A DNA stretch of 57,167 nt, taken from Acidimicrobiia bacterium (GTDB lineage: Bacteria > Actinomycetota > Acidimicrobiia > Spongiisociales > Spongiisociaceae). Shown here piece after piece: positions 2,571-16,222 of this stretch (position 1 is its first letter; every line of letters starts with the position of its first letter). The translations under genes and the position numbers were made by a program. The notes under the pieces are model-generated. The model worked only from the letters and a program-made list of their open reading frames with translations. It did no database searches and was not told where the DNA came from. The stretch spans positions 1 through 57,167 of the forward strand of contig VXMP01000037.1 in NCBI GenBank assembly GCA_009841075.1, in the 5' to 3' direction.

Positions 2571-3149
2571 TCAGCGGCGAGCCTTCATCTTTGCCACCAC
2601 CCCGCCGATGGTGGCGGAAAAGACCTCCAAGGCTATTCCGCTGATCTCTTCCGAGCAGTCGGCAGCCGCAAAGGTAAGCGGCTCGGCCAGGCTTGCCCAG
2701 TGTGGGGCCAGGGTGTTAGGTCCGGTAATCCCCCCTTTTCCCACATCGGATGCCACATAGAGGGTGGTGGTTACGCCGGAGTTGATGATGCGGATAGTGC
2801 ACATCTCGCAAGGTTCGAGGGAGGTAACCAGGGTATGCCCGCGTAGGTCTCCTCCACCCTGGCGGCTGTCCTCATAGATATTGAGGGCCGACATCTCGGC
2901 GTGCAGATCGCTACGAAACCGAGGGGCCAGCATCCGGTTATGGTCGGAAACCAGCACCTTCCGGCCGGGATCGAGGATCACACACCCCACTCCGGCGTTG
3001 CCTTCCAGCCCGGCGTCAATCGCCTCCTTGATGGCTAGTCGAGACACATCGTCGTCCGGATACCGATCGACCATCGATCCGAGTTCGTAGCCGAGTTCAA
3101 GCAGACGGTTACGGGTCGGGGCGGTGATGTTAGCCTTGGGTTGACTCAT
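2571..3149 (-). CDS. Zinc-dependent nucleoside/cytidylate deaminase-like protein
   Basis: This 192-residue protein has the cytidine/deoxycytidylate deaminase zinc fold. HAEMSALN gives the zinc His and the proton-shuttle Glu; SLEPCEMC gives the two zinc Cys residues. It resembles general nucleobase or nucleoside deaminases, but the substrate cannot be read from the sequence. The start is ATG 3149, preceded by a GGAG site eight bases upstream; an upstream in-frame start at 3182 lacks such a site. It is divergent from the amidohydrolase operon that begins at 3299, with about 150 bases between the two starts, so it may feed that pathway by deaminating a cyclic amidine or pyrimidine. That link is inference. 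Confidence 0.8.
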   Translation of the reverse strand: MSQPKANITAPTRNRLLELGYELGSMVDRYPDDDVSRLAIKEAIDAGLEGNAGVGCVILDPGRKVLVSDHNRMLAPRFRSDLHAEMSALNIYEDSRQGGGDLRGHTLVTSLEPCEMCTIRIINSGVTTTLYVASDVGKGGITGPNTLAPHWASLAEPLTFAAADCSEEISGIALEVFSATIGGVVAKMKARR

Positions 3150-3269
3150 GTAGCTCACTCCATCCGAATTTAAGGCGGGCACCTAGAGGTTGCCGGTCCG
3201 ATTCGGATTGTAGTGAAGGGTCGCTAATCCTTATCGGGTTGGTAGCCGGGCTGCCCACCCGTCCTGTAG

Positions 3270-3285
3270 TCGATTAAGAAATCGA
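3270..3285. promoter_or_regulatory. Short inverted repeat upstream of the amidohydrolase operon
   Basis: TCGATT and AATCGA are separated by four bases and end 13 bases before the ATG at 3299, in the divergent region between the deaminase and the amidohydrolase operon. The position would suit a repressor operator or a translational hairpin. The arms are short, so chance is a real alternative. Confidence 0.2.
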
Positions 3286-3298
3286 GGTTGGTAAAAAA

Positions 3299-4909
3299 AT
3301 GGCACGACAACCGCTCGACCTGGCGGTAATAAACGGAACGGTGGTCTTAGGAGGGGGGCGCTATCGGGTGGCGGTAGGCATCAAAGACGGAAAAGTGGCC
3401 ATGCTGGCCCCCGAAGAGCTACTGCCCGCAGCGCAGCGCACGATCGACGCCCGCGGGAACTACGTACTCCCTGGTGTGGTGGACTCCGAAGCCCATCCGG
3501 GATGCTACGTCCCGTTCGACTACGACATGAAGACCGAATCAAGGGCCGCGGCCACTGCCGGTATAACCACCTGGGGGATCCAGGCACCCACCACCCGGCT
3601 CGGAACCAAGCCCTTCAAGGAAGTGGTAGCCCGGTCCGATGTGGTGTCTTTCAACCAGTCCTTCCCTTCGGGGCGGGATGTGATCAACCAACACAGCCAT
3701 GTGGACGCCTACCTGACCTACATGCTGGAAACCGATGAGCACGCCCGTGAAATACCCCAATACGCCGAGGAACACGGGGTCACTTCCTACAAGCTCTATC
3801 TCCAGACCCGGTCCATGAAGGGAATGGCTGACGATGACGACACCAACTGGCCCTCCCGTCGGGCCGGACTCGGCACCGGAATCGACGACGGCACCGTCTA
3901 TCTGGTGATGGAGGAGGTAGGGCATCTCGGCTATCCGGGCATCGTCCACATCCATCCGGAGAACTGGGAAATCGGACGAATTTTCGAGGACCGCCTTCGC
4001 CACAGCGGGAGGACCGATTTCGGTGCCTGGACGGATCGCTCGCCCGATTTCCTGGAAGCCCACCACGTCCGTTCCTATGCCTATCTGGCTATGCAAACCC
4101 CCGGCCATGTACCCCTCTACCTACAGCATTGCACTACCCAACTTTCGTTCGAGGAAGTGACCCGGGCTCGGGCGGAAGGACTGGAGCTCTACGCCCAGAC
4201 CGGCCCTCCCTGGCTATGGGCGCAACCCGAATACGGTTGGCGGATCAACGTCCCGCTCCGCCGCCGGGACAACATCGAGGCGCTCTGGGTAGCGCTGGCC
4301 GAAGGCATCGTCGACGTGGTCGGGTCGGACCACGTGGTCGGCTGGGAGCCCGCCGCCTATGAGGAGATGTTCAACCCGGTGATCTGGGATTGCCGGACCG
4401 GGTTCTCCCGGGTGGAGCTGTTTTTGCCGGTGATGCTGTCCGAAGGGGTCAATAAGGGCCGGATCAGCCTGGAAAGGGCGGTCCAGGTCAGCTGCGAGAA
4501 TCCGGCCAAGACCTCCGGCCTCTGGGGTCGCAAGGGCTCGCTGCTCCCGGGTTTCGACGCCGACCTGGTGATAATCGACCTGGGTAGAGAGGTGAAGGTG
4601 GGTAAGGAACACATCAACACCCGTTCGGGCTGGTCGATCATGGAAGGCCACACCTTCACCGGCTGGCCGATCATGACCATCCTGCGGGGCGAGGTCAGCG
4701 CCGAATGGGCAGACGACTCGCCCGGGATGCGCCCGGTCGGAGAGCCTCGGGGCGAATATCTGGCCCGTAAGCTCCGCCCCAAGCATCAGGTCATCGACTC
4801 GAACAGTCCGGCTCGGATAGCACCCACCCACCGTTGGCTGGCCGATGACTTCGCCCGCCCCGGGTTCGCCCCTGAGACCACCAGGTACGACCGTCCGATG
4901 GGCGGCTGA
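3299..4909 (+). CDS. Hydantoinase/dihydropyrimidinase-like amidohydrolase with altered metal motif
   Basis: This 536-residue protein belongs to the cyclic-amidase branch of the amidohydrolase superfamily (dihydropyrimidinase, hydantoinase, allantoinase, dihydroorotase). These enzymes open cyclic amides with a binuclear metal site. The likely carbamylated Lys is K165 (TSYKLYL). H217/H219 (VHIHPEN), H277 (LQHCTT) and D344 (VGSDH) match the other ligand positions. The first motif, normally DxHxH, reads D62-S-E64-A-H66, so the first His is replaced by Glu. This could mean a mononuclear or otherwise altered site. ATG 3299 follows a GAGG site. It is the first gene of a four-gene operon with gaps of two to five bases. 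The substrate is unknown. Confidence 0.8.
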   Translation: MARQPLDLAVINGTVVLGGGRYRVAVGIKDGKVAMLAPEELLPAAQRTIDARGNYVLPGVVDSEAHPGCYVPFDYDMKTESRAAATAGITTWGIQAPTTRLGTKPFKEVVARSDVVSFNQSFPSGRDVINQHSHVDAYLTYMLETDEHAREIPQYAEEHGVTSYKLYLQTRSMKGMADDDDTNWPSRRAGLGTGIDDGTVYLVMEEVGHLGYPGIVHIHPENWEIGRIFEDRLRHSGRTDFGAWTDRSPDFLEAHHVRSYAYLAMQTPGHVPLYLQHCTTQLSFEEVTRARAEGLELYAQTGPPWLWAQPEYGWRINVPLRRRDNIEALWVALAEGIVDVVGSDHVVGWEPAAYEEMFNPVIWDCRTGFSRVELFLPVMLSEGVNKGRISLERAVQVSCENPAKTSGLWGRKGSLLPGFDADLVIIDLGREVKVGKEHINTRSGWSIMEGHTFTGWPIMTILRGEVSAEWADDSPGMRPVGEPRGEYLARKLRPKHQVIDSNSPARIAPTHRWLADDFARPGFAPETTRYDRPMGG

Positions 4910-4911
4910 AG

Positions 4912-5655
4912 ATGGCCATCTGGGACGACGTTCTCACCGAAACCGATCGACAGGTCTTCGCCGCCGCCGGTTGGGGCAGGCGGGCGGGCTACGGGGAACG
5001 GCCCGCCATCATGGTCATAGACGTCAACTACAACTTCTGTGGCGACCGGGCCGAACCCATCCTGGAGTCGATAGAACGATGGCGCTACGCCTGCGGCCCG
5101 GAAGCCTGGGAGCGAGGCATACCGGCCATCCAAGCCATCCTGGAAGTAGCCCGGGCCAAACGACTACCGGTGATCTACACCACCAACCCCCGCCGACCGG
5201 ACGGCTTCGACCTGGGTATCTGGTCGCTGAAGAGCACCCGGGCCGAGGACGAGGTTGACGTCATGGGACACAAGGGCAACGAGATAGTCGCCGAGGTGGC
5301 ACCGCTGCCGAACGATCTGTTCATCGAGAAACGCAAGCCCTCGGCCTTCTTCGGAACCCCGCTGGCCAGCCATCTCACCATGATGCGGGCCGACTCGCTG
5401 ATAGTTACCGGCACCACCACCAGCGGATGCGTCCGGGCCAGCGCCGTAGACGCCCTCTCCTATGATTTCAAGGTGACCATCCCCCACGAGGCGGTGTTCG
5501 ATCGGGGAGAGGTTTCCCACAAGATCGCCCTATTCGACCTGCATATGAAGTATGTGGACGTCACCGACCTGGAGGACGTGCTGACCTATCTGCGTGGGGT
5601 TCCGGAAGGGTTGTTCGACCACACCTATCCGCCCGCGGCGGAGGCAAGGAGATGA
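4912..5655 (+). CDS. Cysteine hydrolase, isochorismatase/N-carbamoylsarcosine amidase family
   Basis: This is a 247-residue isochorismatase-fold cysteine hydrolase. The catalytic triad is visible as D37 (MVIDVN), a Lys at about 142 (EKRKPS) and C173 (TTTSGCVRAS). Sequence style is closest to N-carbamoylsarcosine amidohydrolase and related N-carbamoyl or amide hydrolases, which release CO2 and ammonia from N-carbamoyl amino acids. This fits the neighbouring gene: a cyclic amidase opening a hydantoin or pyrimidine ring would deliver an N-carbamoyl product. The ATG lies two bases after the previous stop codon, and the next gene starts five bases after this stop. The exact substrate is inference. 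Confidence 0.82.
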   Translation: MAIWDDVLTETDRQVFAAAGWGRRAGYGERPAIMVIDVNYNFCGDRAEPILESIERWRYACGPEAWERGIPAIQAILEVARAKRLPVIYTTNPRRPDGFDLGIWSLKSTRAEDEVDVMGHKGNEIVAEVAPLPNDLFIEKRKPSAFFGTPLASHLTMMRADSLIVTGTTTSGCVRASAVDALSYDFKVTIPHEAVFDRGEVSHKIALFDLHMKYVDVTDLEDVLTYLRGVPEGLFDHTYPPAAEARR

Positions 5656-5659
5656 CCTG

Positions 5660-6241
5660 GTGAGCCTGGATTTCCCGATTCGCAAAATGATCCACCTGGT
5701 AGAGGAGGAACGCAGTCGAGAGGGGATCAAAGCAGATCCCCCGCTGCGTAAGGCGGTCGTGGCGGCCGTTATCCATAATCCTTATGCCGGGCGGTATCAT
5801 GCCGACCTTTCGGAAGGGGTGGAGTTTTCGGTAGGTCTGGGCCGGATCATGGGGGAGATGGCCCTCGAAACCCTGGGCGAGCCGATCCTTTCCTACGGCA
5901 AGGGCGGAATTGCCGGCATAGACGGATCGCAGGAGCATGCGGTTATGTTCTTGTCCACCGCCTTCGCCAATCCCTTGCGCCAGGCCATGGGAGGAGGGGT
6001 GGCCTGGATGTCTTCGGCCACCATCGTCGCCGTGGCCGGAACCCCGATCACCCTTCCTTTAGCACACAAGGACGCCCTTTACGTTCGCGACAACTACGAC
6101 GCCATCACCCTTCATCCAGGCGATGCTCCCCGTCCCGATGAGGTTCTGGTGGCCGTGGCGGTAGCCAACCGGGGGAGGCCCAACGCTCGGATGGGAGGCC
6201 TGGCCGCCTCCGATGTGGAGGGCGTGGACGGGCTCCGCTGA
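5660..6241 (+). CDS. AmS-family (amino acid synthesis family) protein
   Basis: This 193-residue protein belongs to the AmS family (Pfam 'amino acid synthesis protein', PF06684), whose enzymatic role is not established. Supporting segments are AAVIHNPYAGRY, SYGKGGIAGIDGSQEHA, MGGGVAWMSSATIVA and GTPITLPLAHKDALYVRDNY, which are typical of the family. Members often sit beside amidohydrolases in catabolic operons, as here. I use GTG 5660, preceded by AGGAG at 5647-5651; an earlier in-frame start at 5594 would overlap the preceding gene by about 60 bases. The next gene starts four bases downstream. Confidence 0.78.
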   Translation: MSLDFPIRKMIHLVEEERSREGIKADPPLRKAVVAAVIHNPYAGRYHADLSEGVEFSVGLGRIMGEMALETLGEPILSYGKGGIAGIDGSQEHAVMFLSTAFANPLRQAMGGGVAWMSSATIVAVAGTPITLPLAHKDALYVRDNYDAITLHPGDAPRPDEVLVAVAVANRGRPNARMGGLAASDVEGVDGLR

Positions 6242-6244
6242 GCC

Positions 6245-7444
6245 GTGCCTGATCCCCGACGGGTCGGCATAATCAACATCGGTACCCTGGTTACCGGTGA
6301 CCTGGATCGGCCGGTTCTGGATGACGCCGACTCTTTGTTTATCGAAGCCGGGCGGATAGCCGCGGTCGGTGGTCCACTGTGCGAAGACGATGTGGATCAG
6401 CTCATAGACGCGGCAGGTGCCACCGTCGGGCCGGGGCTGATCGACTCGCACTGCCATGTGGTTATCGGTGATTTCACCCCTCGCCAAAACGTGGTCGGCT
6501 TCCTTAGTTCCTATGTCCATGGGGGCATCACCCAGGTGATTTCTCCCGGCGAGATCCACGCTCCCGGTCGGCCTCACGACGCCGACGGGGTGGTGGCCTT
6601 GGCAGTGTTCGCCCAGCGCTCCTGGACCAACTATCGGCCCAACGGGATGAAGGTAAACGGGGGAGCGGTGGTGTTGGAACCAACCCTTCGACCCTCCCAT
6701 TTCCGCTATCTGGCCGACCAAGGGGTTCGGCTGGCCAAGTTCGGTTTCGGGCTTTACGAGGATCCGGCTGACGGGCTACCCCAGGTTGAGGCCGCCCAGG
6801 AGGTGGGTATCAAGGTGATGTGCCACTCCGGCGGGGCTTCGATCCCCGGCTCCAAACCGATAACCGCCCGGCATCTGATGCTGCTCAAACCGGATGTGTG
6901 CGGTCACATCAACGGAGGCCCTTCCTCTCTGGATGATGACGGGGTGGCGGAAATCGTCACCGACACAGATCTGGTATTGCAGATCGTCCAGGCGGGCAAC
7001 CTGAGGAGCGCCATCAGGATCGTTGACCTGGTACTCCAAGTCGGTGCCGAGCAGAGGGTGATAATCGGTTCCGACACCCCGACCGGAACCGGGGTGATGC
7101 CGCTGGGGGTGATCAAAACCATGGCCGAGCTGTCCTCACTGACCGAGGCCGACCCGGCGGTGGTATGGGCCTGGGCTTCGGGAGTGGTCGCCGATGTATA
7201 CGACCTGGAGGCCGGCAAGGTGGAGGTGGGCCGACCGGCGGACCTGATCATCGCCGACGCCCCCTGGGGATCCTATGGGGGTGATGCCCTGGGTGCCCTG
7301 GCCCGTGGGGATATCCCCGGCATAAGCTGCGTTCTCGTTGACGGGCGGATCCGGGCGCTGCGGAGCCGTAACACCCCGGCCGCCGCCCGCCTGGCCGTGG
7401 TAACGCCGGAAGTAGGGGAGCTGCCCGGTTCAAGCCATGTCTAG
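6245..7444 (+). CDS. Enamidase-like amidohydrolase
   Basis: This 399-residue amidohydrolase resembles enamidase, which opens the ring of 6-oxo-tetrahydronicotinate in nicotinate fermentation. The metal motif is canonical here: D67-S-H69-C-H71 in PGLIDSHCHVV. Other likely ligands or catalytic residues are E172 in the GLYEDP segment, H194 (VMCHSGG), H221 (CGHINGG) and the Asp in IIGSDTPTG. The C-terminal beta-sandwich half reads KVEVGRPADLIIADAP. The start is GTG 6245. It ends the operon. Having two different ring-opening amidohydrolases, an N-carbamoyl hydrolase and an AmS protein together suggests degradation of an N-heterocycle that I cannot name. Confidence 0.8.
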   Translation: MPDPRRVGIINIGTLVTGDLDRPVLDDADSLFIEAGRIAAVGGPLCEDDVDQLIDAAGATVGPGLIDSHCHVVIGDFTPRQNVVGFLSSYVHGGITQVISPGEIHAPGRPHDADGVVALAVFAQRSWTNYRPNGMKVNGGAVVLEPTLRPSHFRYLADQGVRLAKFGFGLYEDPADGLPQVEAAQEVGIKVMCHSGGASIPGSKPITARHLMLLKPDVCGHINGGPSSLDDDGVAEIVTDTDLVLQIVQAGNLRSAIRIVDLVLQVGAEQRVIIGSDTPTGTGVMPLGVIKTMAELSSLTEADPAVVWAWASGVVADVYDLEAGKVEVGRPADLIIADAPWGSYGGDALGALARGDIPGISCVLVDGRIRALRSRNTPAAARLAVVTPEVGELPGSSHV

Positions 7445-7553: not shown

Positions 7554-7584
7554 AGTTCAGTTGGCCTTGAAAAAAGGAGCAGAC

Positions 7585-7953
7585 ATGAAAACGTTGACGT
7601 ATAGGGATGCGGCCTGGGAGTTGTTAGATCAGGCGGTTGAGGAAGTGGAGGCCGGGGATGGTCGGTTGGCATCTGAGAAGGGTTGGGGTGCGGCTGCGCA
7701 GATGGTGAAGGCGGTGGCCGAGAGTAGGGGCCGGCCACATGATACCCATACTTCATTGTTTAGAGTCATAGATAGTGTTGTTGAGGAGACGGATGATGAT
7801 TGGATATACGATGACTTTATGATAGCCAATTCTCTCCGTCAGAACTTCTATGAGAACCAGATGTCATCACCGAATGTTGTCCAGGGTCTGGAATATGTGA
7901 CCAGACTTTTGAAGAGGTTGGATGCGCCGGATGTGTGGGGAGGTGGGGTATGA
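7585..7953 (+). CDS. PaREP1/HEPN-like protein, copy 1
   Basis: This 122-residue alpha-helical protein resembles the PaREP1 family, a HEPN-type fold known mainly from archaea. The helix AAWELLDQAVEEVEAGD followed by ASEKGWGAAAQMVKAVAES is the family signature. HEPN ribonucleases use an Rx4-6H motif; R48 with H55 (or H52) in SRGRPHDTH fits. I chose ATG 7585 because GGAG lies eight bases upstream; a TTG at 7561 would add eight residues. The second copy overlaps its stop codon. No nucleotidyltransferase partner (as in MNT-HEPN toxin-antitoxin pairs) is adjacent. Codon use is visibly more AT-rich than in the neighbours, which may signal transfer. Confidence 0.7.
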   Translation: MKTLTYRDAAWELLDQAVEEVEAGDGRLASEKGWGAAAQMVKAVAESRGRPHDTHTSLFRVIDSVVEETDDDWIYDDFMIANSLRQNFYENQMSSPNVVQGLEYVTRLLKRLDAPDVWGGGV

Positions 7954-8312
7954 GGACGTTGACGTATAGGGATGCGGCTTGGGAGTTGTTAGATCAGGCG
8001 GTTGAGGAGGTGGAGGAGGGGGATTGTCGGCAGGCGTCTGAGAAGGGTTGGGGTGCGGTGGCGCAGATGGTGAAGGCGGTGGCCGAGAGCAGGGGTTGGC
8101 CACATGATACCCATACGGCACTGTTTAGAGTCATAGATGGTCTTGTTGAGGAGACAGACGATAATCTGATCTATAATTACTTTTTGGTAGCGAACTCTCT
8201 TCATCAGAACTTCTATGAGAACCAGATGGCATCACCGAATGTTGTTCGGGGTTTGGAACGAGTGGCTCGACTCTTAGGCCGATTGGATGCTCCAGATGTG
8301 TTGGGAGTTTAG
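7950..8312 (+). CDS. PaREP1/HEPN-like protein, copy 2
   Basis: This 120-residue paralog of the preceding gene is identical at roughly four of five positions by eye. It keeps the helical core AAWELLDQAVEEVEEGD and the SRGWPHDTH segment with the candidate Rx6H residues. Its ATG overlaps the TGA of copy 1 (ATGA), so the two are co-translated, and a heteromer is plausible. Changes cluster around residues 64-80 (DDNLIYNYFLVAN versus DDDWIYDDFMIAN). Its TAG stop overlaps the TAA of the convergent menA gene. The long near-identical DNA shows a direct tandem duplication. Function is not known. Confidence 0.7.
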   Translation: MRTLTYRDAAWELLDQAVEEVEEGDCRQASEKGWGAVAQMVKAVAESRGWPHDTHTALFRVIDGLVEETDDNLIYNYFLVANSLHQNFYENQMASPNVVRGLERVARLLGRLDAPDVLGV

Positions 8313-9222: not shown

Positions 9223-9672
9223 ATGGTCAAGAATTCCAATCATCCTCTCAAGCTCCGGCGGGGCCAGGTTATACCGGCCGCCGAGCTGCGATGGGATTTC
9301 GGCCCCTCTTCCGGTCCGGGCGGACAGCACGTCAACCGTTCCAACACCCGGGTCGGGCTTACCCTGTCGGTCATCAAATCCGCCGCATTTACCGATCAGG
9401 AGAAGGAGCGCATCGAGCGTCGCTTGGGTTCCAGGATGCGCTCGGGGACTCTTCGGGTGGTGGCCGACGATCACCGCTCCCAGTGGCGCAACCGCCAGGA
9501 TGCCCGCCGGCGGATGGCTGCCCTGCTTGATATGGCTCTCTCGCCCGAGCCTCCCGTCCGGCGGGCGACCCAACCGAGCCGGGCGGCCCGCCGCAACCGG
9601 ATGGAGGCCAAGCGCCGCCGCTCGGAGACCAAACGGCTGCGTCGCCCACCCGGCCGCAACGAAGACGACTAA
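9223..9672 (+). CDS. arfB: ArfB/YaeJ-like peptidyl-tRNA hydrolase, ribosome rescue factor
   Basis: This 149-residue release-factor-domain protein rescues stalled ribosomes by hydrolysing peptidyl-tRNA. SSGPGGQHVNRSNTRV carries the catalytic GGQ motif. The C-terminal tail is very rich in Arg and Lys (RRNRMEAKRRRSETKRLRR), matching the ArfB tail that enters the empty mRNA channel. There is no codon-recognition domain, unlike RF1 and RF2. ATG 9223 is used. Its TAA stop overlaps the stop of the convergent helicase gene by three bases. Confidence 0.88.
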   Translation: MVKNSNHPLKLRRGQVIPAAELRWDFGPSSGPGGQHVNRSNTRVGLTLSVIKSAAFTDQEKERIERRLGSRMRSGTLRVVADDHRSQWRNRQDARRRMAALLDMALSPEPPVRRATQPSRAARRNRMEAKRRRSETKRLRRPPGRNEDD

Positions 9673-12600
9673 CCAGGCGGGTCGAACCCCATCGAACAGA
9701 TCACCCGGGGTTCGCTTCGAGGTCGAGAGGGGTCCGGCAACCTACACAACATCTGCTCTTTGTAGAGGTCGACGATTCGGGCGGCCAGGCCGGATTGACT
9801 GTTCGACCGCAGCTCGATGGACAGAAGTTGGGCGGCCCGATCCATCAGTGGGAACCTACGCAGCTGCTCCAAGGCCTGGTCAAGGTCTTCCGGAGACACA
9901 TACAGCTCAAGTTGGGGCTGAGAGGAGTAATCCTTGAGCTTCTCATAGCAGCGCCCGCGGATGCCGATGGGGACGACCGCCGTCTTGTCAGGCGGAGAGG
10001 TTATCGGCCCCTCGAAGGCTTGGGCCACCAGCTCAAGATGGTCGGAACGAGGTGGGGCGGGAGGTGTCTCCGGCTCGCATCGGGTGATCCGCAGCGCCTC
10101 CTGAGGGCTGATCCGGCGGGCCTTCCCGTTTTCCGACACCACCACGAACGTGTCGGAGCCAGTAACGGTCTGGGTATGCACCACCACTCCCGAGAGAGCC
10201 CGAACCGTTTCTTCTTGCTCCGGGCGGAGGGTGGCGTAGACCACGTTGGGCAGATTCTCCACCTGCTTGGCCAGCTCCGGATGATCTTCTTCTGCCTGCC
10301 GCCAGATTTCGTAGGCCATCGAAGCCGGATCGACATCTTCGGAGGGAGCATGGTCCCATTCGGAGAGCTCGGTGAAAATACCCTTCACTGCTTCCTGTTC
10401 TTTGTCGTCTCCGAAGAACTGCTCATCCGAGCCCAGTAGGCGGGCGTTATCCCCCAGGCGGTCTCGGATGCGCTTGCGCAGGGTGATCTTTTCCTCCACC
10501 CGGTCGGCGGGCAGCAGGCTGTAGAGGAGCACCTTTTCGGATTGCTGGCCGATGCGGTCCACCCGTCCGGCCCGTTGCACCAGCTTGATGATGGCCCAGG
10601 GCAGGTCGTAGTTAACCACGATGCGGGCGTCCTGCAGGTTCTGCCCCTCGGAGAGCACATCGGTCGAGACCAGTACCTGTAGCTCCTCTTCTACCTCATC
10701 CAGCACGAACGGATGGGTGCCGGGGGAGAAGCGGCGGGCCAGCATGGTGGCGTTGCCATCCTGTCCGGTTACCCGGGCCACCCGTTCGATGTTCCGTTCC
10801 TCCAGAGCACGGGAGACGTAGTCGGCAGTGTCGCTATATTCGGTGAACACCAGCACCTTCTCGCCGGGATGGGTTTCCTGGATCAGTTTGACCAGGGTGT
10901 TGATCTTGCCGTCCTTAGTCTGGTCCCAGTTCCCGAAGCGTTCCAGCAGGCTGTCGATCACCCGAATGTCGTGGGCCAGGTCCTGGGCGAAACGACTGTC
11001 AAGATGTCGGGTGGGGAGCCATCTCAGCTTGCTGGGCGGCTTTTCCTGGAGCTTGCGATAGGCCTCGGCGGGTTGGTAGTCCACGCCGACGTTGTCGAAA
11101 TGGCCTCGAAACAAACCGTCGTCTTCGGTGCCCAGGTCCGAATCCCAGACCGCCTTCTGGATGTCGCCGATCGGCACCGGTAGGCCCGATTCCATGGCGT
11201 AAAGGGTGACCCGATCCCGCAGCTGATGCCGTTTCAGGGTTAGGAGAAAGGCCGGACCCGAGGAGGTGAGCCGCTTATACATCATGATCCGGTTGAAACC
11301 GGCTACCGATCCCCCGGCGAGCTTCAGGTCCTCCAGCAGTTTTTCTCCCTCTTGGTCGGCCGGTTCAGCATCGGTCAGGTAGTTGGCGAAGGAGTAGCGG
11401 GGACGCTTCAGATCCCTCACCTGGTCCAGAGTTTGATCCGACATCATCCGGGCGGCCGGATCATCGTCATCGATTATCCGTTCGATCGGGTGGGCCTCCC
11501 GTTCGGGGAAGTAGAAGCGGTCGCGGTTCCGTTTTCCGAAGGTGAGATATTTGCGTTCTTGCTCGTCTTCCTCGGCGTAGTTGTCCTCGATGAAGCGGCG
11601 GGTGCGGCGGACCATGAACTGCGACATCAGGGTCTGCCAGTCCTCCAGTTCCTCCGATCGTCGGAAGGCGGCCAGCGAGGAGGTCAACCCCTCACAAGCG
11701 ATGGCAAACGGATCCTCGCCCGCCTTTTCGATGGCCTTTTCGGGGCGTATCCCCAGGTCCTGGTGGTCGTTGAGGAACAGCGAAAGCTGGCTGTCCAGGT
11801 CTTCGAGGCTCTTGTTGTAGGGGGTGGCCGACAGCAGCAGCACCCGTGATTCGTTGTTCTGGATGTATTTGGTGAGGGCCTGATGATCCTTTCGTTTGGG
11901 ATTACGGAGGTTGTGGGATTCGTCCACGATCAGCAGCCGATGCCTGGGCTTGGACGTCAGCTCCCTGGTGACCATCGACAGCGAAAGCACTTCGCCGTGT
12001 AGTCGGTACCGGTGTCGGTAGTCCTCCCACATCGGAACCAGGTTCTTGGGGCATACGATCAGGGTTTCCCAGCCCTGATCCTCTTGGAGTAGGCGGGCGA
12101 TAGCGGTGGCCACCATGGTCTTGCCCAGGCCTACCACGTCTCCGATCATCGCCCCGCCCTTGTCGATCACGATGCGGGCGGCGATCTTGACGGCCGCTTC
12201 CTGGAACTTGAGCAGTTGATCGGCCATGGAGGTGGGCAGCCCGAAACTGATCAGCCCCTCCCGAGCCTCTCTGGACAGGTGATAGGCCATCTTCAGGTGG
12301 ATCAGATAGGGGGGTAGCGGCTCTTCGCCCGCCCAGGAACGGTCCAAAATCTCGACCAGCTCCGGGTTGGCCTCCAGGGTGAACCGATCGCTCCAGAGCT
12401 TCTCGAACCAGTCGGCCAGGAGTTGGGTGGAGGTGATGTCGGTGACGTCCACGTTCAGCTCGCCTTTTTCGCGCAGGCCCGCTCCGGTGAGGTTGGATGA
12501 ACCCACATATCCGATGCGGGGTACCGGCTGGTCATCACGGTGGGCCAGGTAGAGCTTGGCGTGCAGGCGATGGGCCAGGCACATGCGCAGGTCCACCTCA

Positions 12601-12989
12601 CCTCGCTCGATCTGGCATTTCAGCAGCCGCAGCTGGTTTTCGTCAGATGGAGTGGGGATGCCCACCTCCAGTTGGGCACGGAACTCGGCCAGTGCCTCTT
12701 GCATGGCTTCCGAGACTGCGGCCCCGTCGACCGGAGGGGAAGGTCGGGTGCGCAGCAGGCGGCGCATCTCCCGTTGGGGATCCTCGGTACTTCCCACCAG
12801 CACACGGGCCTTGGTCCCGTCTTCTGCACCGGGCAGAGCAGATACAGAGTCTGAAATCAAGCCCCAACCCCGCAGGTTGAAATAACCCACCGCCGAGTCC
12901 AGGCTCCGTGAGGACCGGAGGGTCTGGAGCAGGGAGGCCTCCATCTGGTTGTCGGTGCCTTCAGACAGGTTGTCGAGGATGCGCGGCAT
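9669..12989 (-). CDS. SNF2-type helicase with N-terminal phospholipase-D-like domain
   Basis: This 1,106-residue protein joins a phospholipase-D-like N-terminal domain to a superfamily-2 (SNF2/HepA-like) helicase. In the N-domain, H143 and K145 (LHAKLYL) with S164/N166 (GSSNLTG) form one HKD-type half-site, usually nuclease-related. The helicase shows Walker A GLGKT (287-291), DESH (356-359), SATPYNKS (motif III), VLVFTEYSDTADYV (motif IV) and LVQRAGRVDRIGQ (motif VI). The C-terminal ~250 residues are not recognised. It starts six bases after the stop of the upstream methyltransferase, so the two form an operon. SNF2 helicase plus N6-adenine methyltransferase pairs are typical of phage-defence islands (for example DrmD/DrmMI in class 1 DISARM); other DISARM genes are absent here. 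Confidence 0.85.
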   Translation of the reverse strand: MPRILDNLSEGTDNQMEASLLQTLRSSRSLDSAVGYFNLRGWGLISDSVSALPGAEDGTKARVLVGSTEDPQREMRRLLRTRPSPPVDGAAVSEAMQEALAEFRAQLEVGIPTPSDENQLRLLKCQIERGEVDLRMCLAHRLHAKLYLAHRDDQPVPRIGYVGSSNLTGAGLREKGELNVDVTDITSTQLLADWFEKLWSDRFTLEANPELVEILDRSWAGEEPLPPYLIHLKMAYHLSREAREGLISFGLPTSMADQLLKFQEAAVKIAARIVIDKGGAMIGDVVGLGKTMVATAIARLLQEDQGWETLIVCPKNLVPMWEDYRHRYRLHGEVLSLSMVTRELTSKPRHRLLIVDESHNLRNPKRKDHQALTKYIQNNESRVLLLSATPYNKSLEDLDSQLSLFLNDHQDLGIRPEKAIEKAGEDPFAIACEGLTSSLAAFRRSEELEDWQTLMSQFMVRRTRRFIEDNYAEEDEQERKYLTFGKRNRDRFYFPEREAHPIERIIDDDDPAARMMSDQTLDQVRDLKRPRYSFANYLTDAEPADQEGEKLLEDLKLAGGSVAGFNRIMMYKRLTSSGPAFLLTLKRHQLRDRVTLYAMESGLPVPIGDIQKAVWDSDLGTEDDGLFRGHFDNVGVDYQPAEAYRKLQEKPPSKLRWLPTRHLDSRFAQDLAHDIRVIDSLLERFGNWDQTKDGKINTLVKLIQETHPGEKVLVFTEYSDTADYVSRALEERNIERVARVTGQDGNATMLARRFSPGTHPFVLDEVEEELQVLVSTDVLSEGQNLQDARIVVNYDLPWAIIKLVQRAGRVDRIGQQSEKVLLYSLLPADRVEEKITLRKRIRDRLGDNARLLGSDEQFFGDDKEQEAVKGIFTELSEWDHAPSEDVDPASMAYEIWRQAEEDHPELAKQVENLPNVVYATLRPEQEETVRALSGVVVHTQTVTGSDTFVVVSENGKARRISPQEALRITRCEPETPPAPPRSDHLELVAQAFEGPITSPPDKTAVVPIGIRGRCYEKLKDYSSQPQLELYVSPEDLDQALEQLRRFPLMDRAAQLLSIELRSNSQSGLAARIVDLYKEQMLCRLPDPSRPRSEPRVICSMGFDPPG

Positions 12990-12995
12990 CAGGGC

Positions 12996-14609
12996 TTATC
13001 CGCGGTTTCCGAAGGTCATGCGATCCCGCAGGTTGCCCGCCGCCTCATATTCCTCACGGGTGAGCCCCCAGGCCTGGGCCAGCAACCAATCCGCCTCGTC
13101 GGTGATGTAACGGAGCGGGCGCATGTTGTAGATACCCACCCTTTGGCCGGCGTTCAACTGCCAGATCAGATGATTGGGCATCTCGGTTTTCAGAAGTTCT
13201 GCCAGCTCCAGAATCCGATTTACTAGACTGACGAGTTCCATGTCAGACGGGGGGCTGGTAGCCAGACGTTCAATGTCACACGGGACTGCGGCTAGCACAG
13301 TCGGTGTGACATTGAACTCGTCACCGTAAATCAACCACCAGAGGTAGGCCCACCGTCCGGCCAGCACCATAAGGGCAATATCACGGTGGGTTGGTTGACT
13401 GAAATAAAAGCAGCCGAGATTAGGCGCAATGGGATTACCGGATTGGTCCAATACGGGTGGCGGGGTCTCATACACACCCAGCATGAAGTATCCAACCTTT
13501 CTGAATACAAGTTGGAATTCAGAACGGGAGATGATGCTGCTTCTAATGGGCTCGGCCTCTCTCACCAGTCGGTCAAACACATCAGATAAAGCCGAATCAA
13601 TAAACGGCCACTGGTAACTATTACAGCTATAGAACAAACTAATAGATGGTTTGGTATATTCCAACGAGTCGAACAGTCTCGTAAATCCTTGCTTATTCCA
13701 CCTCATTAATCGGGTGGTATGCAGACCGATACTCGAGTTGCCGGCCGATAGAAGAATCGTATTCCTTACCTTGGCGGACCCGGCAAAAAGGCTGTCGGGG
13801 CCTCGGGCGTAGGAGGAAATCCATAAAGCCGGGAAACGATTCTCCAGATAATGTCTGGCAGTCAAATACCGTGTGCTGAAACAGAGGTTGTGCATAACGA
13901 TCATGGCCATCCGACCCTGAGGGTTCAACAGGTTGGAAGCTCTTTCCACACACAACGCGTAGATGTTGGGGCATTTTTCGGTTTGATAGCCCATCCACCG
14001 GTATTCGGTAACGTTCCCTTTGTTGATATACGGTGGATTGCCGACTACCACGTCAAAGCCGCCTTGTTGCCAGACGGAGGGAAACTCGGCGAACCAGTGG
14101 AAGGGAGAATGCGATTTCTTCCAGTCATCGAAGGGCTGTGTTTCGGTACGCATCTTGTGTAGCGCGGCATCTGCCTGGTAGGTGGCGGCTTTTATCTGGG
14201 CTACCAGGCGCTGTTTACCGGCTACCTTTTCCGCGCCGGTTTGGGATATCTGGGCCTGGGCGAAGATTTCGTAGTCTGCGGCAGCCTGATTAGCGGCTTG
14301 CTCTGCTGCAAGAAGCCCTTCATGGGCCAGTAGAGAACTCTCAAATCGGCGGCGGGCGTCTTCCATATCGGCGATACCAACCAGTAGGTTGCCGGTTTTG
14401 ATGTTGAAGTCCAGGTCGGGGAGGGGTTCGATCTGGGAAACGTCTTCGAGCTGGGCGACCAACTTCAGGAACAGCCGGAGTCGGGCGATCTCCACCGCCT
14501 CGCCCATCAGGTCCAGACCGTATAGGTTGTTAAGACAGAGGGTTTTCAGCAGCCAATAGCGCTGGTTGGGGTGCTCTTGGGCCTCATCCAGGAATGCCGG
14601 CGGACCAAA
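12996..14609 (-). CDS. Eco57I-like N6-adenine DNA methyltransferase, C-terminal half (out of frame with N-half)
   Basis: This stretch encodes the last 537 residues of the methyltransferase whose N-terminal half is the next entry. It continues directly from the (CT)8 tract in a different frame and has no convincing start codon of its own. It carries the second catalytic motif, NPPYINKG (residues 728-731 of the reconstructed protein), which positions the target adenine. It also carries LCLNNLYGLDLMGEAVEIAR, the motif downstream of the SAM site, and a C-terminal target-recognition-like region. Removing one dinucleotide unit fuses it to the N-half to give 1,074 residues. As sequenced, catalysis would be lost because motif I and NPPY lie on separate polypeptides. 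Phase variation, recent decay or a sequencing error could explain this. Confidence 0.8.
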   Translation of the reverse strand, partial: FGPPAFLDEAQEHPNQRYWLLKTLCLNNLYGLDLMGEAVEIARLRLFLKLVAQLEDVSQIEPLPDLDFNIKTGNLLVGIADMEDARRRFESSLLAHEGLLAAEQAANQAAADYEIFAQAQISQTGAEKVAGKQRLVAQIKAATYQADAALHKMRTETQPFDDWKKSHSPFHWFAEFPSVWQQGGFDVVVGNPPYINKGNVTEYRWMGYQTEKCPNIYALCVERASNLLNPQGRMAMIVMHNLCFSTRYLTARHYLENRFPALWISSYARGPDSLFAGSAKVRNTILLSAGNSSIGLHTTRLMRWNKQGFTRLFDSLEYTKPSISLFYSCNSYQWPFIDSALSDVFDRLVREAEPIRSSIISRSEFQLVFRKVGYFMLGVYETPPPVLDQSGNPIAPNLGCFYFSQPTHRDIALMVLAGRWAYLWWLIYGDEFNVTPTVLAAVPCDIERLATSPPSDMELVSLVNRILELAELLKTEMPNHLIWQLNAGQRVGIYNMRPLRYITDEADWLLAQAWGLTREEYEAAGNLRDRMTFGNRG

Positions 14610-16222
14610 CTCTCTCTCTCTCTCTCGGAGATCTCTTCGGCTCGTTCGTATAGGGCGGTGTACATCGGTTCGAGCACGTCCAGGGCGGAGAGCAGGAACG
14701 CTCCCGATCCGCAGGTCGGGTCGCATACCTTTAGATCGCGCAGCACCTCGAACGCCACCGAACACTCGTCTGACCGCATCTGGCTGAAGTAGTCCTCCAT
14801 CAGGCCCACCAAATCCAGGTTGGCGGTGACCGCTTCATCAATGGTGGTCACCCCGCCGCCGTCCACCTCGGCCACCAGCTTGTGATAGCGCTCACGCCGG
14901 TGGGTCACATCGCACCAGCGTTCTCCAGGCAGGGCCAGGTCCAAGCCCTCGTCCGGGTAGGCGCTGGGCGGCAGGTCCCCCTCCGGTAGATCCCGGTCGA
15001 TCCCGTAGCCCAGGCTGTCGTGCAGGTATTGGTCGCCGGACCCTGGCAGCAGGATGCACGGGTCCTCCAAACCGGCCTCCACCATCCGGTCTACCACCGC
15101 CGGGATGATGGTGTAGGTGGTCATGTAGCCGGTGACATCCGGCTTGGTGTAGTAGGCACCTTTTTCTTTCTGGCCCTTTTCGGTGAAGTTGATGTACTGC
15201 TCGAAGATGAACCCCAAAATGTCCGGATTGATCTCGTTGTCCCTTCCGGAGGGGCGTTCGTCAAGATGCCAGCGCCAATCGTCGAAGAAACGGAAAATCT
15301 CCTCGAACACCGAGTCGCAGATCTGGATGTCATAGGTGCTCTCCAGGTGATGCTCTTCGAAAATGCCGCCGTCCACGTAGGGCACCTCCCCGATGATTTC
15401 GGCAATGCGAGGGTCGGACCAGTTTCGGACCGCGAGCGGAGCACCCAGGCCCTCATGGAACAACGGCAGCAGATACTCGCGGAAGAAGGCGTAGAACTCG
15501 TCCGGCCCGAAGGCTTCCCTCACCCTTTGCAATCCGGTTCCCAGGTAATGAAGGTCGCCGTTCATAAAACCCTTGCGCTGGATGAAATAGATGAACATGA
15601 GCCGGTTCAACAGGATGGAGGCATACCAGCGACGGTCGCGATCTTGCTGATCGGGAATGCCCTTGATCCGTTCGGTGAGCGACCGGTGATACTTCTGGAA
15701 CTCCTGGTAGAAGCGCTTGGTCACCCGGTCGACGTTGAACGACCGCCGCACCCTTTCCAGCACCTGCGGGCCGGTCAAGGATTGATGGTCTTTCAGGTCG
15801 AACCTGATCCCCTCCAGCCTCTGCAACAGGGCGTCGTTGGTACTCCCTCGTCGATAGTGGTGGTCAACCAGTCTCCAGCCCGATCCGGAGGGACGTTGCT
15901 CGGGCCAAAGCCATAGCTGTTCTGCTCCGGTATCGAATATCAGCAGCTGGTCGGATGCTCTTTGGCGTAGCTGCCTGGTTATTCGCCTCTGCCGGGCTCG
16001 GATCGGAATCTGCGCGCACTGAACCGCCCACACCATCACCCCTCGAAGCTCGGCCTCCCCACAGGCGAACAGGATTTCGGTGGGTTCCTCCTCGTCCGAC
16101 TCCAATTCGACCTGCCGTGAATCATCGGGCGGGTTGTCCCAGCCCAGCAGACGGAACAGAGCACCGAAATCGCCCTGGTCCAGATAGTGGCGAAAGTCTC
16201 CGTTGAGAGATGGTCTGGTCAT
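14546..16222 (-). CDS. Eco57I-like N6-adenine DNA methyltransferase, N-terminal half (frameshifted at (CT)8)
   Basis: The frame encodes 558 residues from ATG 16222. Residues 1-537 belong to a large class-I N6-adenine methyltransferase of the Eco57I/PglX type; the last 21 residues are read out of frame after the repeat. The SAM-binding motif I is DPTCGSGAFLL at residues 501-511. KGAYYTKPDVTGYM around residue 350 is the conserved segment found ahead of motif I in these enzymes. Further residues to about 330 are a helical N-terminal region without a clear nuclease motif. The gene is first in an operon with the helicase. Upstream is a 93-base gap to the EamA gene; no strong ribosome-binding site is visible there. 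Confidence 0.82.
   Translation of the reverse strand: MTRPSLNGDFRHYLDQGDFGALFRLLGWDNPPDDSRQVELESDEEEPTEILFACGEAELRGVMVWAVQCAQIPIRARQRRITRQLRQRASDQLLIFDTGAEQLWLWPEQRPSGSGWRLVDHHYRRGSTNDALLQRLEGIRFDLKDHQSLTGPQVLERVRRSFNVDRVTKRFYQEFQKYHRSLTERIKGIPDQQDRDRRWYASILLNRLMFIYFIQRKGFMNGDLHYLGTGLQRVREAFGPDEFYAFFREYLLPLFHEGLGAPLAVRNWSDPRIAEIIGEVPYVDGGIFEEHHLESTYDIQICDSVFEEIFRFFDDWRWHLDERPSGRDNEINPDILGFIFEQYINFTEKGQKEKGAYYTKPDVTGYMTTYTIIPAVVDRMVEAGLEDPCILLPGSGDQYLHDSLGYGIDRDLPEGDLPPSAYPDEGLDLALPGERWCDVTHRRERYHKLVAEVDGGGVTTIDEAVTANLDLVGLMEDYFSQMRSDECSVAFEVLRDLKVCDPTCGSGAFLLSALDVLEPMYTALYERAEEISERERESLVRRHSWMRPKSTPTSAIGC
14610..14626. repeat. (CT)8 dinucleotide tract inside the methyltransferase gene
   Basis: Seventeen bases of perfect CT repeat (GA on the coding strand) lie within the codons for ERERE. 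The frame changes exactly here: the upstream frame reads on into SLVRRHSW and then a stop, while the downstream frame begins FGPPAFLDEAQ. Losing one unit (two bases), or gaining two, restores the frame. Dinucleotide tracts in coding sequence are classic sites of slipped-strand mispairing. Confidence 0.9.

What the first reader, a model, noticed from the sequence alone, without database searches (positions are those of the whole stretch)
2571..7444. Unassigned N-heterocycle degradation operon with divergent deaminase
A cyclic amidase, an N-carbamoylsarcosine-amidase-like hydrolase, an AmS-family protein and an enamidase-like hydrolase are packed with 2-5 base gaps, with a zinc deaminase divergent. 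The set would deaminate, open and decarbamoylate a ring, but it matches no complete pathway I know (creatinine, hydantoin, pyrimidine and nicotinate routes each explain only part). The AmS protein has no established reaction.
Basis: partly seen in the sequence, partly recalled or inferred. Interest (0 to 1): 0.55.

Follow-up and report, generated by a model that had tools for sequence, protein, structure and literature searches.

The report
Probable 7-deazaguanine ring-degradation gene cluster
A conserved set of bacterial genes looks like a pathway that opens and dismantles the ring of 7-deazaguanine-type bases, a class of tRNA and antibiotic building blocks for which we found no described breakdown route; the same ring-opening enzymes also sit beside genes that make such bases in a few actinomycetes.

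Summary
The five genes are real, packed as described and conserved: CSH follows HYD in 13 of 13 related loci, AAS follows CSH in 12, ENA is seen in 12. They are half of a set. In relatives the operon continues with DUF1989, an archaeosine-synthase-like protein (c6), a class II aldolase-type protein, an aminotransferase, an amidohydrolase (AMH2) and an amine oxidase; in the window's genome these lie on another contig near a second amidohydrolase, AMH1. The divergent deaminase is lineage-specific; AMH1 is in exactly the 13 of 59 relatives that have HYD. Two clues suggest the substrate. In five actinomycete genera HYD-CSH sit beside GTP cyclohydrolase I, QueD and QueE genes (the 7-carboxy-7-deazaguanine route), with AMH1 on the same contig; and c6 carries an archaeosine-synthase motif. 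Best explanation: a 7-deazaguanine is deaminated, ring-opened, decarbamoylated and decarboxylated, and the remaining pyrrolinone is opened by an enamidase homologue to 2-formylsuccinate. Every reaction is inferred; xanthine is the main rival substrate. Six degradation phrases were in no paper of the open-licence library.

The parts
2571..3182 (-). DEAM: cytidine-deaminase-fold zinc deaminase (PF00383), divergent; probably a lineage-specific accessory deaminase
   Evidence: Pfam; zinc signature HAE ... PCEMC invariant in 7 aligned sequences; in 8 of 35 loci
3299..4909 (+). HYD: cyclic amidohydrolase (dihydropyrimidinase/hydantoinase superfamily) of a distinct subfamily with Glu64-x-His66 in place of His-x-His; proposed to open the ring of a 7-deazaxanthine
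   Evidence: orthologues in 13 of 59 relatives; Glu64 in 36 of 36 subfamily members, His in 16 of 16 paralogues; Lys165, His219, His277 and Asp344 in 50 of 50 rows of at least 450 residues
4912..5655 (+). CSH: N-carbamoylsarcosine-amidohydrolase-like cysteine hydrolase; proposed ureidopyrrole amidohydrolase
   Evidence: Asp37, Lys140 and Cys173 in 36 of 36 rows, one of them (L016) a more distant 42% relative; follows HYD in 13 of 13 loci
5660..6241 (+). AAS: PF06684 (DUF1185, 'amino acid synthesis') protein; proposed deiminase or tautomerase that feeds ENA
   Evidence: family alignments; separate AAS-ENA pair in a Streptomyces
6245..7444 (+). ENA: enamidase homologue; proposed opener of a 5-oxo-pyrroline-3-carboxylate ring
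   Evidence: 2vun match E 1e-101, profile 398 bits; five of six enamidase metal ligands (list recalled) kept, Glu164 replaced by Lys165 in 25 of 25

Best explanation
The genes are half of a catabolic pathway for 7-deazaguanine-type bases, most simply 7-carboxy-7-deazaguanine (CDG) or compounds trimmed to it. SHOWN by sequence: the gene families, their conservation together, the split of the set over two contigs of this genome, and the linkage of HYD-CSH to CDG-type biosynthesis genes in other bacteria. INFERRED: every reaction. (1) A base or nucleoside enters through a PnrA-type or NMT1-type ABC transporter and its 7-side chain is trimmed to a carboxylate (aminotransferase, amine oxidase, aldehyde dehydrogenase, archaeosine-synthase-like c6; the least certain part). 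(2) AMH1, helped in this lineage by DEAM, hydrolyses the 2-amino group to give a 7-deazaxanthine. (3) HYD opens the pyrimidinedione ring to a 2-ureidopyrrole-3-carboxylate. (4) CSH removes the carbamoyl group as CO2 and NH3, leaving a 2-aminopyrrole. (5) The class II aldolase-type protein decarboxylates it. (6) DUF1989 and/or AAS replaces the amidine-like amino group by oxygen, giving 5-oxo-4,5-dihydro-1H-pyrrole-3-carboxylate, the five-membered homologue of the known enamidase substrate (recalled). (7) ENA opens this cyclic enamide to 2-formylsuccinate and NH3, and from there to succinate semialdehyde.
For: Linkage to CDG synthesis: in 5 of 35 HYD loci (Actinomadura, Marinitenerispora, Actinoplanes, Nonomuraea, Streptomyces) HYD-CSH lie beside GTP cyclohydrolase I, QueD-like and QueE-like genes with canonical motifs. 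Each of those 5 genomes has one strong QueE match (93-103 bits), and it is this one; 0 of 5 genomes of the catabolic type searched alongside has one. No strong QueC match in the 5 (two weak ones on other contigs), so that route would stop at CDG. AMH1 orthologues (63-77% to the query, itself one of them) are on the same contig as QueE in all 5, 4-9 kb away in three and 20-23 kb in two, and in exactly the 13 of 59 relatives that hold HYD. Second clue: all 20 c6 homologues found carry C-x3-KPY-x2-S-x2-H, and no other place in the 37 loci searched does; c6 hits the two NCBIfam archaeosine synthase alpha models at 1e-6 to 2e-6 and one orthologue passes the DUF5591 cut-off; its model (pLDDT 91.6) aligns best with AF0587 (Z 11.1 over 137 residues), which has the same motif. 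The rest of the set is in the same genome. ENA is a close enamidase relative. PnrA-type importers (5 loci) or NMT1-type binding proteins (2 loci) recur.
Against: No enzyme of this set was assayed. The five biosynthetic-type HYDs form one clade, so that linkage may be a single evolutionary event, and the product of that cluster is unknown to me. QueE, QueD and FolE matches there fall below their curated NCBIfam equivalog cut-offs. c6 similarity to archaeosine synthase is weak by sequence, Foldseek alone gave nothing at E <= 0.001, c6 is missing from L073 and its genome, and the other matches are tied with tubulins. The aminotransferase and amine oxidase are in only 11 and 9 of the 14 fully flanked catabolic loci. 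The best models for AMH2 are TRZ/ATZ-type aminohydrolases and its best solved relative a 5-methylthioadenosine deaminase, not guanine deaminases; AMH1 itself was not scanned. The proposed chemistry would work equally on xanthine. AAS and ENA also occur as a pair without HYD. ENA has Lys where the enamidase has its bridging Glu164.
Confidence: 0.55

Rival explanations
1. The same enzymes act on xanthine itself: a non-oxidative purine route with the chemistry of the purine-fermenting clostridia (xanthine to 4-ureido-5-imidazolecarboxylate, 4-amino-5-imidazolecarboxylate, 4-aminoimidazole, imidazolone, formiminoglycine; recalled, not from a call).
For: The step order would be identical and the families fit; AMH2 is in the aminohydrolase group that includes 8-oxoguanine and guanine deaminases; PnrA-type importers recur.
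Against: It does not explain why HYD-CSH-AMH1 accompany FolE-QueD-QueE nor the archaeosine-synthase-like c6. An enamidase-type enzyme suits a pyrrolinone better than an imidazolone (inference).
Confidence: 0.22
2. A pyrimidine, hydantoin or creatinine catabolic operon: HYD opens a dihydropyrimidine or hydantoin, CSH removes the carbamoyl group, and the deaminase acts on a cytosine- or creatinine-like precursor.
For: HYD is in the hydantoinase superfamily and CSH is close to N-carbamoylsarcosine amidohydrolases.
Against: HYD is far from the hydantoinase model (184 bits against a 393 cut-off) and lacks the first metal-site His; among the neighbours that were scanned no dihydropyrimidine dehydrogenase or creatinine-pathway gene was seen; ENA, DUF1989, c6 and the QueE linkage stay unexplained.
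Confidence: 0.1
3. A nicotinate- or pyridine-type route: ENA opens a six-membered oxo-tetrahydropyridine, and the other hydrolases serve side reactions.
For: ENA is a close relative of the Eubacterium barkeri enamidase; an AAS-ENA pair occurs without HYD.
Against: Among the neighbours that were scanned no nicotinate hydroxylase or 6-hydroxynicotinate reductase was seen; HYD and CSH have no role in that route (recalled); the bridging Glu164 is Lys in 25 of 25.
Confidence: 0.08

Closest known systems
Enamidase of Eubacterium barkeri (PDB 2vun; organism and pathway recalled)
   Same: ENA matches over nearly its whole length, 398 bits by profile; five of six metal-binding residues kept (ligand list recalled)
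   Different: Bridging Glu164 is Lys165 in 25 of 25; no nicotinate gene seen among the scanned neighbours; the proposed ring is five-membered
Clostridial xanthine amidohydrolase / ureidoimidazolecarboxylate / aminoimidazole pathway (recalled)
   Same: Proposed order of steps: open the pyrimidinedione, remove the carbamoyl group, decarboxylate, deiminate, open the five-membered ring
   Different: Proposed substrate is a 7-deazapurine (pyrrole instead of imidazole); no gene-level comparison was made here
N-carbamoylsarcosine amidohydrolase (PDB 26st, 1nba) of creatinine degradation
   Same: CSH matches at 113 and 105 bits; invariant Asp, Lys and Cys
   Different: Its partner here is a metal-dependent cyclic amidohydrolase, and no creatinine gene was seen among the scanned neighbours
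7-deazaguanine biosynthesis (FolE, QueD, QueE), also part of pyrrolopyrimidine antibiotic clusters such as tubercidin and huimycin (PMC6112128, PMC7439116: search listing with the start of the abstract only)
   Same: Five HYD loci hold FolE-QueD-QueE-like genes with canonical motifs
   Different: In the HYD loci they stand beside ring-opening hydrolases; the tubercidin and huimycin clusters were not compared gene by gene here
Archaeosine synthase core domain (DUF5591; AF0587, PDB 2q07)
   Same: c6 shares the C-x3-KPY-x2-S-x2-H motif and aligns with AF0587 at Z 11.1
   Different: c6 is a stand-alone protein of about 344 residues in bacteria; action on tRNA is not implied

Membership tests
Enamidase (2vun type) | Full-length sequence similarity | tested here: met
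   E 1e-101 with a single sequence; 398 bits over profile positions 3-381 of 395
Enamidase (2vun type) | Six metal ligands His67, His69, Glu164, His193, His221, Asp276 (list recalled) | tested here: not met
   Five kept; Glu164 is Lys165 in 25 of 25 ENA sequences of at least 300 residues. So it is called an enamidase homologue, not an enamidase
Dihydropyrimidinase / hydantoinase | His-x-His plus Lys, two His and Asp metal site (recalled) | tested here: not met
   His66, Lys165, His219, His277, Asp344 kept, but the first His is Glu64 in 36 of 36; NCBIfam cut-offs not reached
N-carbamoylsarcosine-amidohydrolase-like (isochorismatase superfamily) | Asp-Lys-Cys catalytic residues (recalled) | tested here: met
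   Asp37, Lys140 and Cys173 in 36 of 36; PF00857 99 bits against 27
PF06684 (AA_synth / DUF1185) | Pfam gathering score | tested here: met
   183 bits against 27
Archaeosine synthase (ArcS) core, c6 | DUF5591 gathering score | tested here: inconclusive
   25.4 and 25.0 bits for two orthologues, 27.8 for a third; cut-off 26
Archaeosine synthase (ArcS) core, c6 | PC-x3-KPY-x2-S-x2-H signature (recalled as the ArcS signature; present in AF0587) | tested here: met
   C-x3-KPY-x2-S-x2-H in all 20 c6 homologues; the leading Pro is Ala in one, L071
Archaeosine synthase (ArcS) | TGT-like and PUA domains, action on preQ0-tRNA (recalled) | not tested
   c6 is only about 344 residues, so a whole ArcS is not claimed; activity cannot be tested here
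[quoted passage not shown] GC-x3-C-x2-C radical SAM signature (recalled) | tested here: met
   Aligned in 5 of 5 loci
[quoted passage not shown]
   93-103 bits against 206 in 5 of 5 genomes; so called QueE-like. Of the 14 control genomes of that one search match and only 1 is over the cut-off
Any of the above | Catalytic activity on a 7-deazapurine | not testable with these tools
   Needs enzyme assays

The most novel reading that the evidence does not exclude
Bacteria have a dedicated, scattered pathway that takes apart the 7-deazaguanine ring itself (AMH1-HYD-CSH core, then an enamidase-type ring opening to 2-formylsuccinate). A group of actinomycetes has recruited the same three-enzyme core into a biosynthetic cluster, where it would turn CDG into an aminopyrrole dicarboxylate building block for an unknown natural product.
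Probability: 0.45. Interest if true: 0.85.

Novelty: new variant of a known kind. Interest (0 to 1): 0.72.

Why it matters
7-Deazaguanines (queuine, preQ0, preQ1, archaeosine, several antibiotics; recalled) are made by many bacteria, and six phrases for their degradation were in no paper of the library searched. A concrete gene set, with some carriers whose records are not MAGs, makes their breakdown directly testable. It would also give a reaction context to PF06684 (named 'amino acid synthesis', without a stated reaction in the passages read of PMC2954203), to a DUF1989 group, to a metal-site variant of the hydantoinase superfamily and to a stand-alone archaeosine-synthase-like protein, and it points to a biosynthetic cluster of unknown product.

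Tried and rejected
Chance packing of unrelated genes: rejected by conservation. Deaminase as a core enzyme: rejected as a universal part (8 of 35 loci). Deaminase structure: low confidence (pLDDT 52.6), so no fold search was made with it. c6 in viral contigs: 19 stretches matched a pattern, none was confirmed; in phage records three weak matches of 69 residues in Sulfolobus viruses, E 8e-4 to 2e-3. HYD on plasmids: no match at E <= 1e-60. Foldseek with c6: nothing at E <= 0.001; AF0587 emerged only in the second look. QueC in the five biosynthetic-type genomes: two weak matches on other contigs, one of them over Pfam's cut-off with its neighbours, none near the cluster.

Literature: PMC2954203 (two passages) suggests amino-acid metabolism and gives no reaction there; PMC11888242 (ten passages) and PMC6313347 (four passages) hold nothing on ring degradation in what I saw; six phrases for queuine, queuosine or deazapurine degradation or catabolism were in 0 papers; searches listed no paper whose title or abstract start describes such a pathway (listings only; some searches showed 20 of 7,274, 25 of 124, 12 of 25 and 12 of 33). 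Not held: (the main recent review of 7-deazaguanines). So novelty is provisional.

Rows dropped or to be read with care: L076 (HYD fragment) was left out of the tree; one search used HYD rows of at least 450 residues, which drops L076 and L063 (its HYD frame is interrupted), and ENA rows of at least 300, which drops the L071 fragment; L078 was too short for the HYD alignments. In the tree all HYD loci that are not of the biosynthetic type were labelled catabolic, including short contigs that show only part of the set. One AMH1 orthologue (G018) has a TGA inside its frame. The scan that found L045-L079 used the patterns DSEAHPGC or TTWGIQAP, so Glu64 is partly circular there; the 11 sequences of alignment A1, which came from the window and whole-genome searches and not from patterns, also all have it. 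The first c6 alignment had one row on the wrong strand and was replaced. Greedy ORF calls c17, c18, c25, c32, c36 and c50 had no Pfam match; c18 and c32 lie opposite AMH2 and c6 and all six were treated as spurious without further checks.
Full report
What is there. The five genes are at the stated place: DEAM 2571-3182 (-), HYD 3299-4909, CSH 4912-5655, AAS 5660-6241, ENA 6245-7444, with gaps of 2, 4 and 3 bases between the four co-directional genes. Pfam, NCBIfam and PDB searches give a zinc deaminase, a cyclic amidohydrolase, an N-carbamoylsarcosine-amidohydrolase-like enzyme, a PF06684 protein and a close homologue of enamidase 2vun.

Conservation. A search of 59 related genomes found HYD at 81-93% identity in 13; the next matches are at 35-36%. 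In the 13 loci CSH follows HYD in 13, AAS follows CSH in 12 (in L044 it is divergent upstream) and ENA is seen in 12 (in L037 the contig ends). DEAM is adjacent in 9 and about 2 kb away in one; L041 cannot tell.

The operon is longer. In relatives ENA is followed by DUF1989, an unnamed protein (c6), a class II aldolase/adducin-type protein, a class III aminotransferase, an amidohydrolase (AMH2) and an amine oxidase. In L044 ENA, DUF1989 and c6 are followed by a PnrA-type ABC importer. In the window's genome these genes are on contig C22: DUF1989, c6, aldolase-type, aminotransferase, AMH2, amine oxidase, and then AMH1 on the other strand. So this genome holds the set in two places.

Distribution. 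A scan of one genome per species (84,980 species) with the HYD alignment gave 35 loci in Actinomycetota, Chloroflexota, Alphaproteobacteria and Verrucomicrobiota. Of the 18 with at least 8 kb on both sides, 14 are of a catabolic type (ENA 14, DUF1989 14, AAS 13, c6 13, aldolase-type 13, aminotransferase 11, amine oxidase 9, QueE 0) and 4 are of a biosynthetic type (FolE, QueD, QueE 4 each; ENA, DUF1989, AAS, c6 and aldolase-type 0); a fifth biosynthetic-type locus, L058, has a shorter flank. A tree puts the five biosynthetic-type HYDs in one clade (100/97) inside the others, next to two catabolic ones.

The substrate clue from the biosynthetic type. In Actinomadura kijaniata, Marinitenerispora sediminis, Actinoplanes regularis, Nonomuraea deserti and Streptomyces sp. 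NBRC 109706, HYD-CSH are next to GTP cyclohydrolase I, a QueD-like and a QueE-like gene, with ATP-grasp ligases, a ketoacyl synthase III, an acyl-CoA dehydrogenase and an aminotransferase further on where the stretch held reaches them (Pfam was run on the Nonomuraea set and two Streptomyces genes). The motifs are canonical in 5 of 5, although the scores stay under the curated equivalog cut-offs. Each of these genomes has one strong QueE match, this one; 0 of 5 catabolic-type genomes searched alongside has one, some of these being MAGs. No strong QueC match was found, so the product of these three genes should be CDG (the FolE-QueD-QueE order is stated in PMC11888242, passages read). AMH1 orthologues (63-77%) are on the same contig as QueE in all 5, 4-9 kb away in three, 20-23 kb in Nonomuraea and Actinoplanes. 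c6 is absent from all 5 genomes and present in 4 of the 5 catabolic-type ones; ENA is strong in 5 of 5 catabolic-type genomes and in one biosynthetic-type genome, there in a separate AAS-ENA pair. The common core of both types is thus AMH1, HYD and CSH.

The substrate clue from c6. All 20 c6 homologues found carry C-x3-KPY-x2-S-x2-H. c6 matches the archaeosine synthase models at 1e-6 to 2e-6 and AF0587 by profile at 0.0018. Its model is confident (pLDDT 91.6). Foldseek alone found nothing at E <= 0.001, but the second look placed AF0587 first at Z 11.1 (2.6 A, 137 residues), well ahead of a uracil-DNA glycosylase at 5.3, which is tied with tubulins. That AF0587 and this motif belong to the archaeosine synthase core is recalled. 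c6 is rare, in 3 of 396 genomes of the phylum, the window's own among them. It also occurs without HYD in a Rhizobium plasmid next to an annotated '8-oxoguanine deaminase', an aminotransferase, an aldehyde dehydrogenase and a monooxygenase, and an Alphaproteobacterial HYD locus has a 73% identical copy of that deaminase.

AMH1 against HYD. AMH1 orthologues (67-78%) are in exactly the 13 of 59 relatives that hold HYD; the next matches are AMH2 at 45-51% and then 37%. In 10 of the 13 they lie on the HYD contig, about 8-21 kb away; in 3 they are on another contig; one (G018) has a TGA inside.

Active sites. HYD keeps the Lys, two His and Asp of the cyclic amidohydrolase metal site but has Glu64 for the first His in 36 of 36 members; 16 of 16 paralogues have His (partly circular, see Tried and rejected). 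ENA keeps five of six enamidase ligands, with Lys for Glu164 in 25 of 25. CSH keeps Asp37, Lys140 and Cys173 in 36 of 36.

Proposed working, all inferred. 7-Carboxy-7-deazaguanine is deaminated (AMH1, here also DEAM), the pyrimidinedione opened (HYD), the carbamoyl group removed (CSH), the carboxylate next to the amino group lost (aldolase-type), the amino group replaced by oxygen (DUF1989 or AAS), and the resulting 5-oxo-pyrroline-3-carboxylate opened by ENA to 2-formylsuccinate. That pyrrolinone is the five-membered homologue of 1,4,5,6-tetrahydro-6-oxonicotinate, the known enamidase substrate (recalled). Aminotransferase, amine oxidase, aldehyde dehydrogenase and c6 would bring side-chained bases such as preQ1 or queuine to that point; this part is the least certain. 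The clostridial xanthine route (recalled) uses the same order of steps on an imidazole and is both the mechanistic precedent and the chief rival.

Known or new. The families are known; the combination with the proposed substrate was not found in the library (listings only). The library holds open-licence PMC papers only, and the main recent review of 7-deazaguanines could not be read, so novelty is provisional.

Verdict. Observation confirmed; interpretation right in kind and incomplete in extent; the most likely function is 7-deazaguanine ring catabolism (0.55), with xanthine as main rival (0.22).

Noticed in passing
window 9669-16222 (-): An HKD+SNF2 helicase-like defence gene (PADLOC C3a139, 147 bits) beside a type IIG restriction-modification gene that lies in two overlapping frames (12996-14765 and 14546-16222), each matching one half of the same model.
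   Followed up: partly
window 7561-8312: Two tandem, very similar PaREP1 family genes directly downstream of ENA.
   Followed up: no
L087 3960-19320 (contig C22 of the same genome): A DNA methylase (N6_N4_Mtase, 10031-11122) lies between c6 and the aldolase-type gene; two PLP-dependent-enzyme genes and two carbon-nitrogen hydrolase genes are nearby.
   Followed up: no
L068 7400-11288: Type III CRISPR (Cmr) genes lie between ENA and DUF1989 in one relative.
   Followed up: no
L088 4950-22633 (Rhizobium sp. ACO-34A plasmid CP021373.1): c6 in a different catabolic-looking operon with HpaB-type monooxygenase, flavin reductase, amidase, deacetylase, arylmalonate-decarboxylase family, 8-oxoguanine deaminase, aminotransferase and aldehyde dehydrogenase, but without HYD: perhaps an oxidative variant.
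   Followed up: partly
L054 9199-10254, L057 6911-8299, L093 8589-9722: Histone-deacetylase-domain proteins recur near HYD or c6 in three loci.
   Followed up: no
L094 9458-11223: A separate AAS-ENA pair in Streptomyces sp. NBRC 109706; neighbours judged by eye only to be TRAP transporter genes and a TPP enzyme.
   Followed up: partly
L058, L060, L062, L077, L079: A conserved cluster with FolE-, QueD- and QueE-like genes, HYD, CSH and further biosynthetic genes in five actinomycete genera, product unknown to me.
   Followed up: partly
phage records OP999027.1, JQ287645.1, NC_020077.1: Weak 69-residue similarity of c6 to hypothetical proteins of Sulfolobus viruses, E 8e-4 to 2e-3.
   Followed up: no
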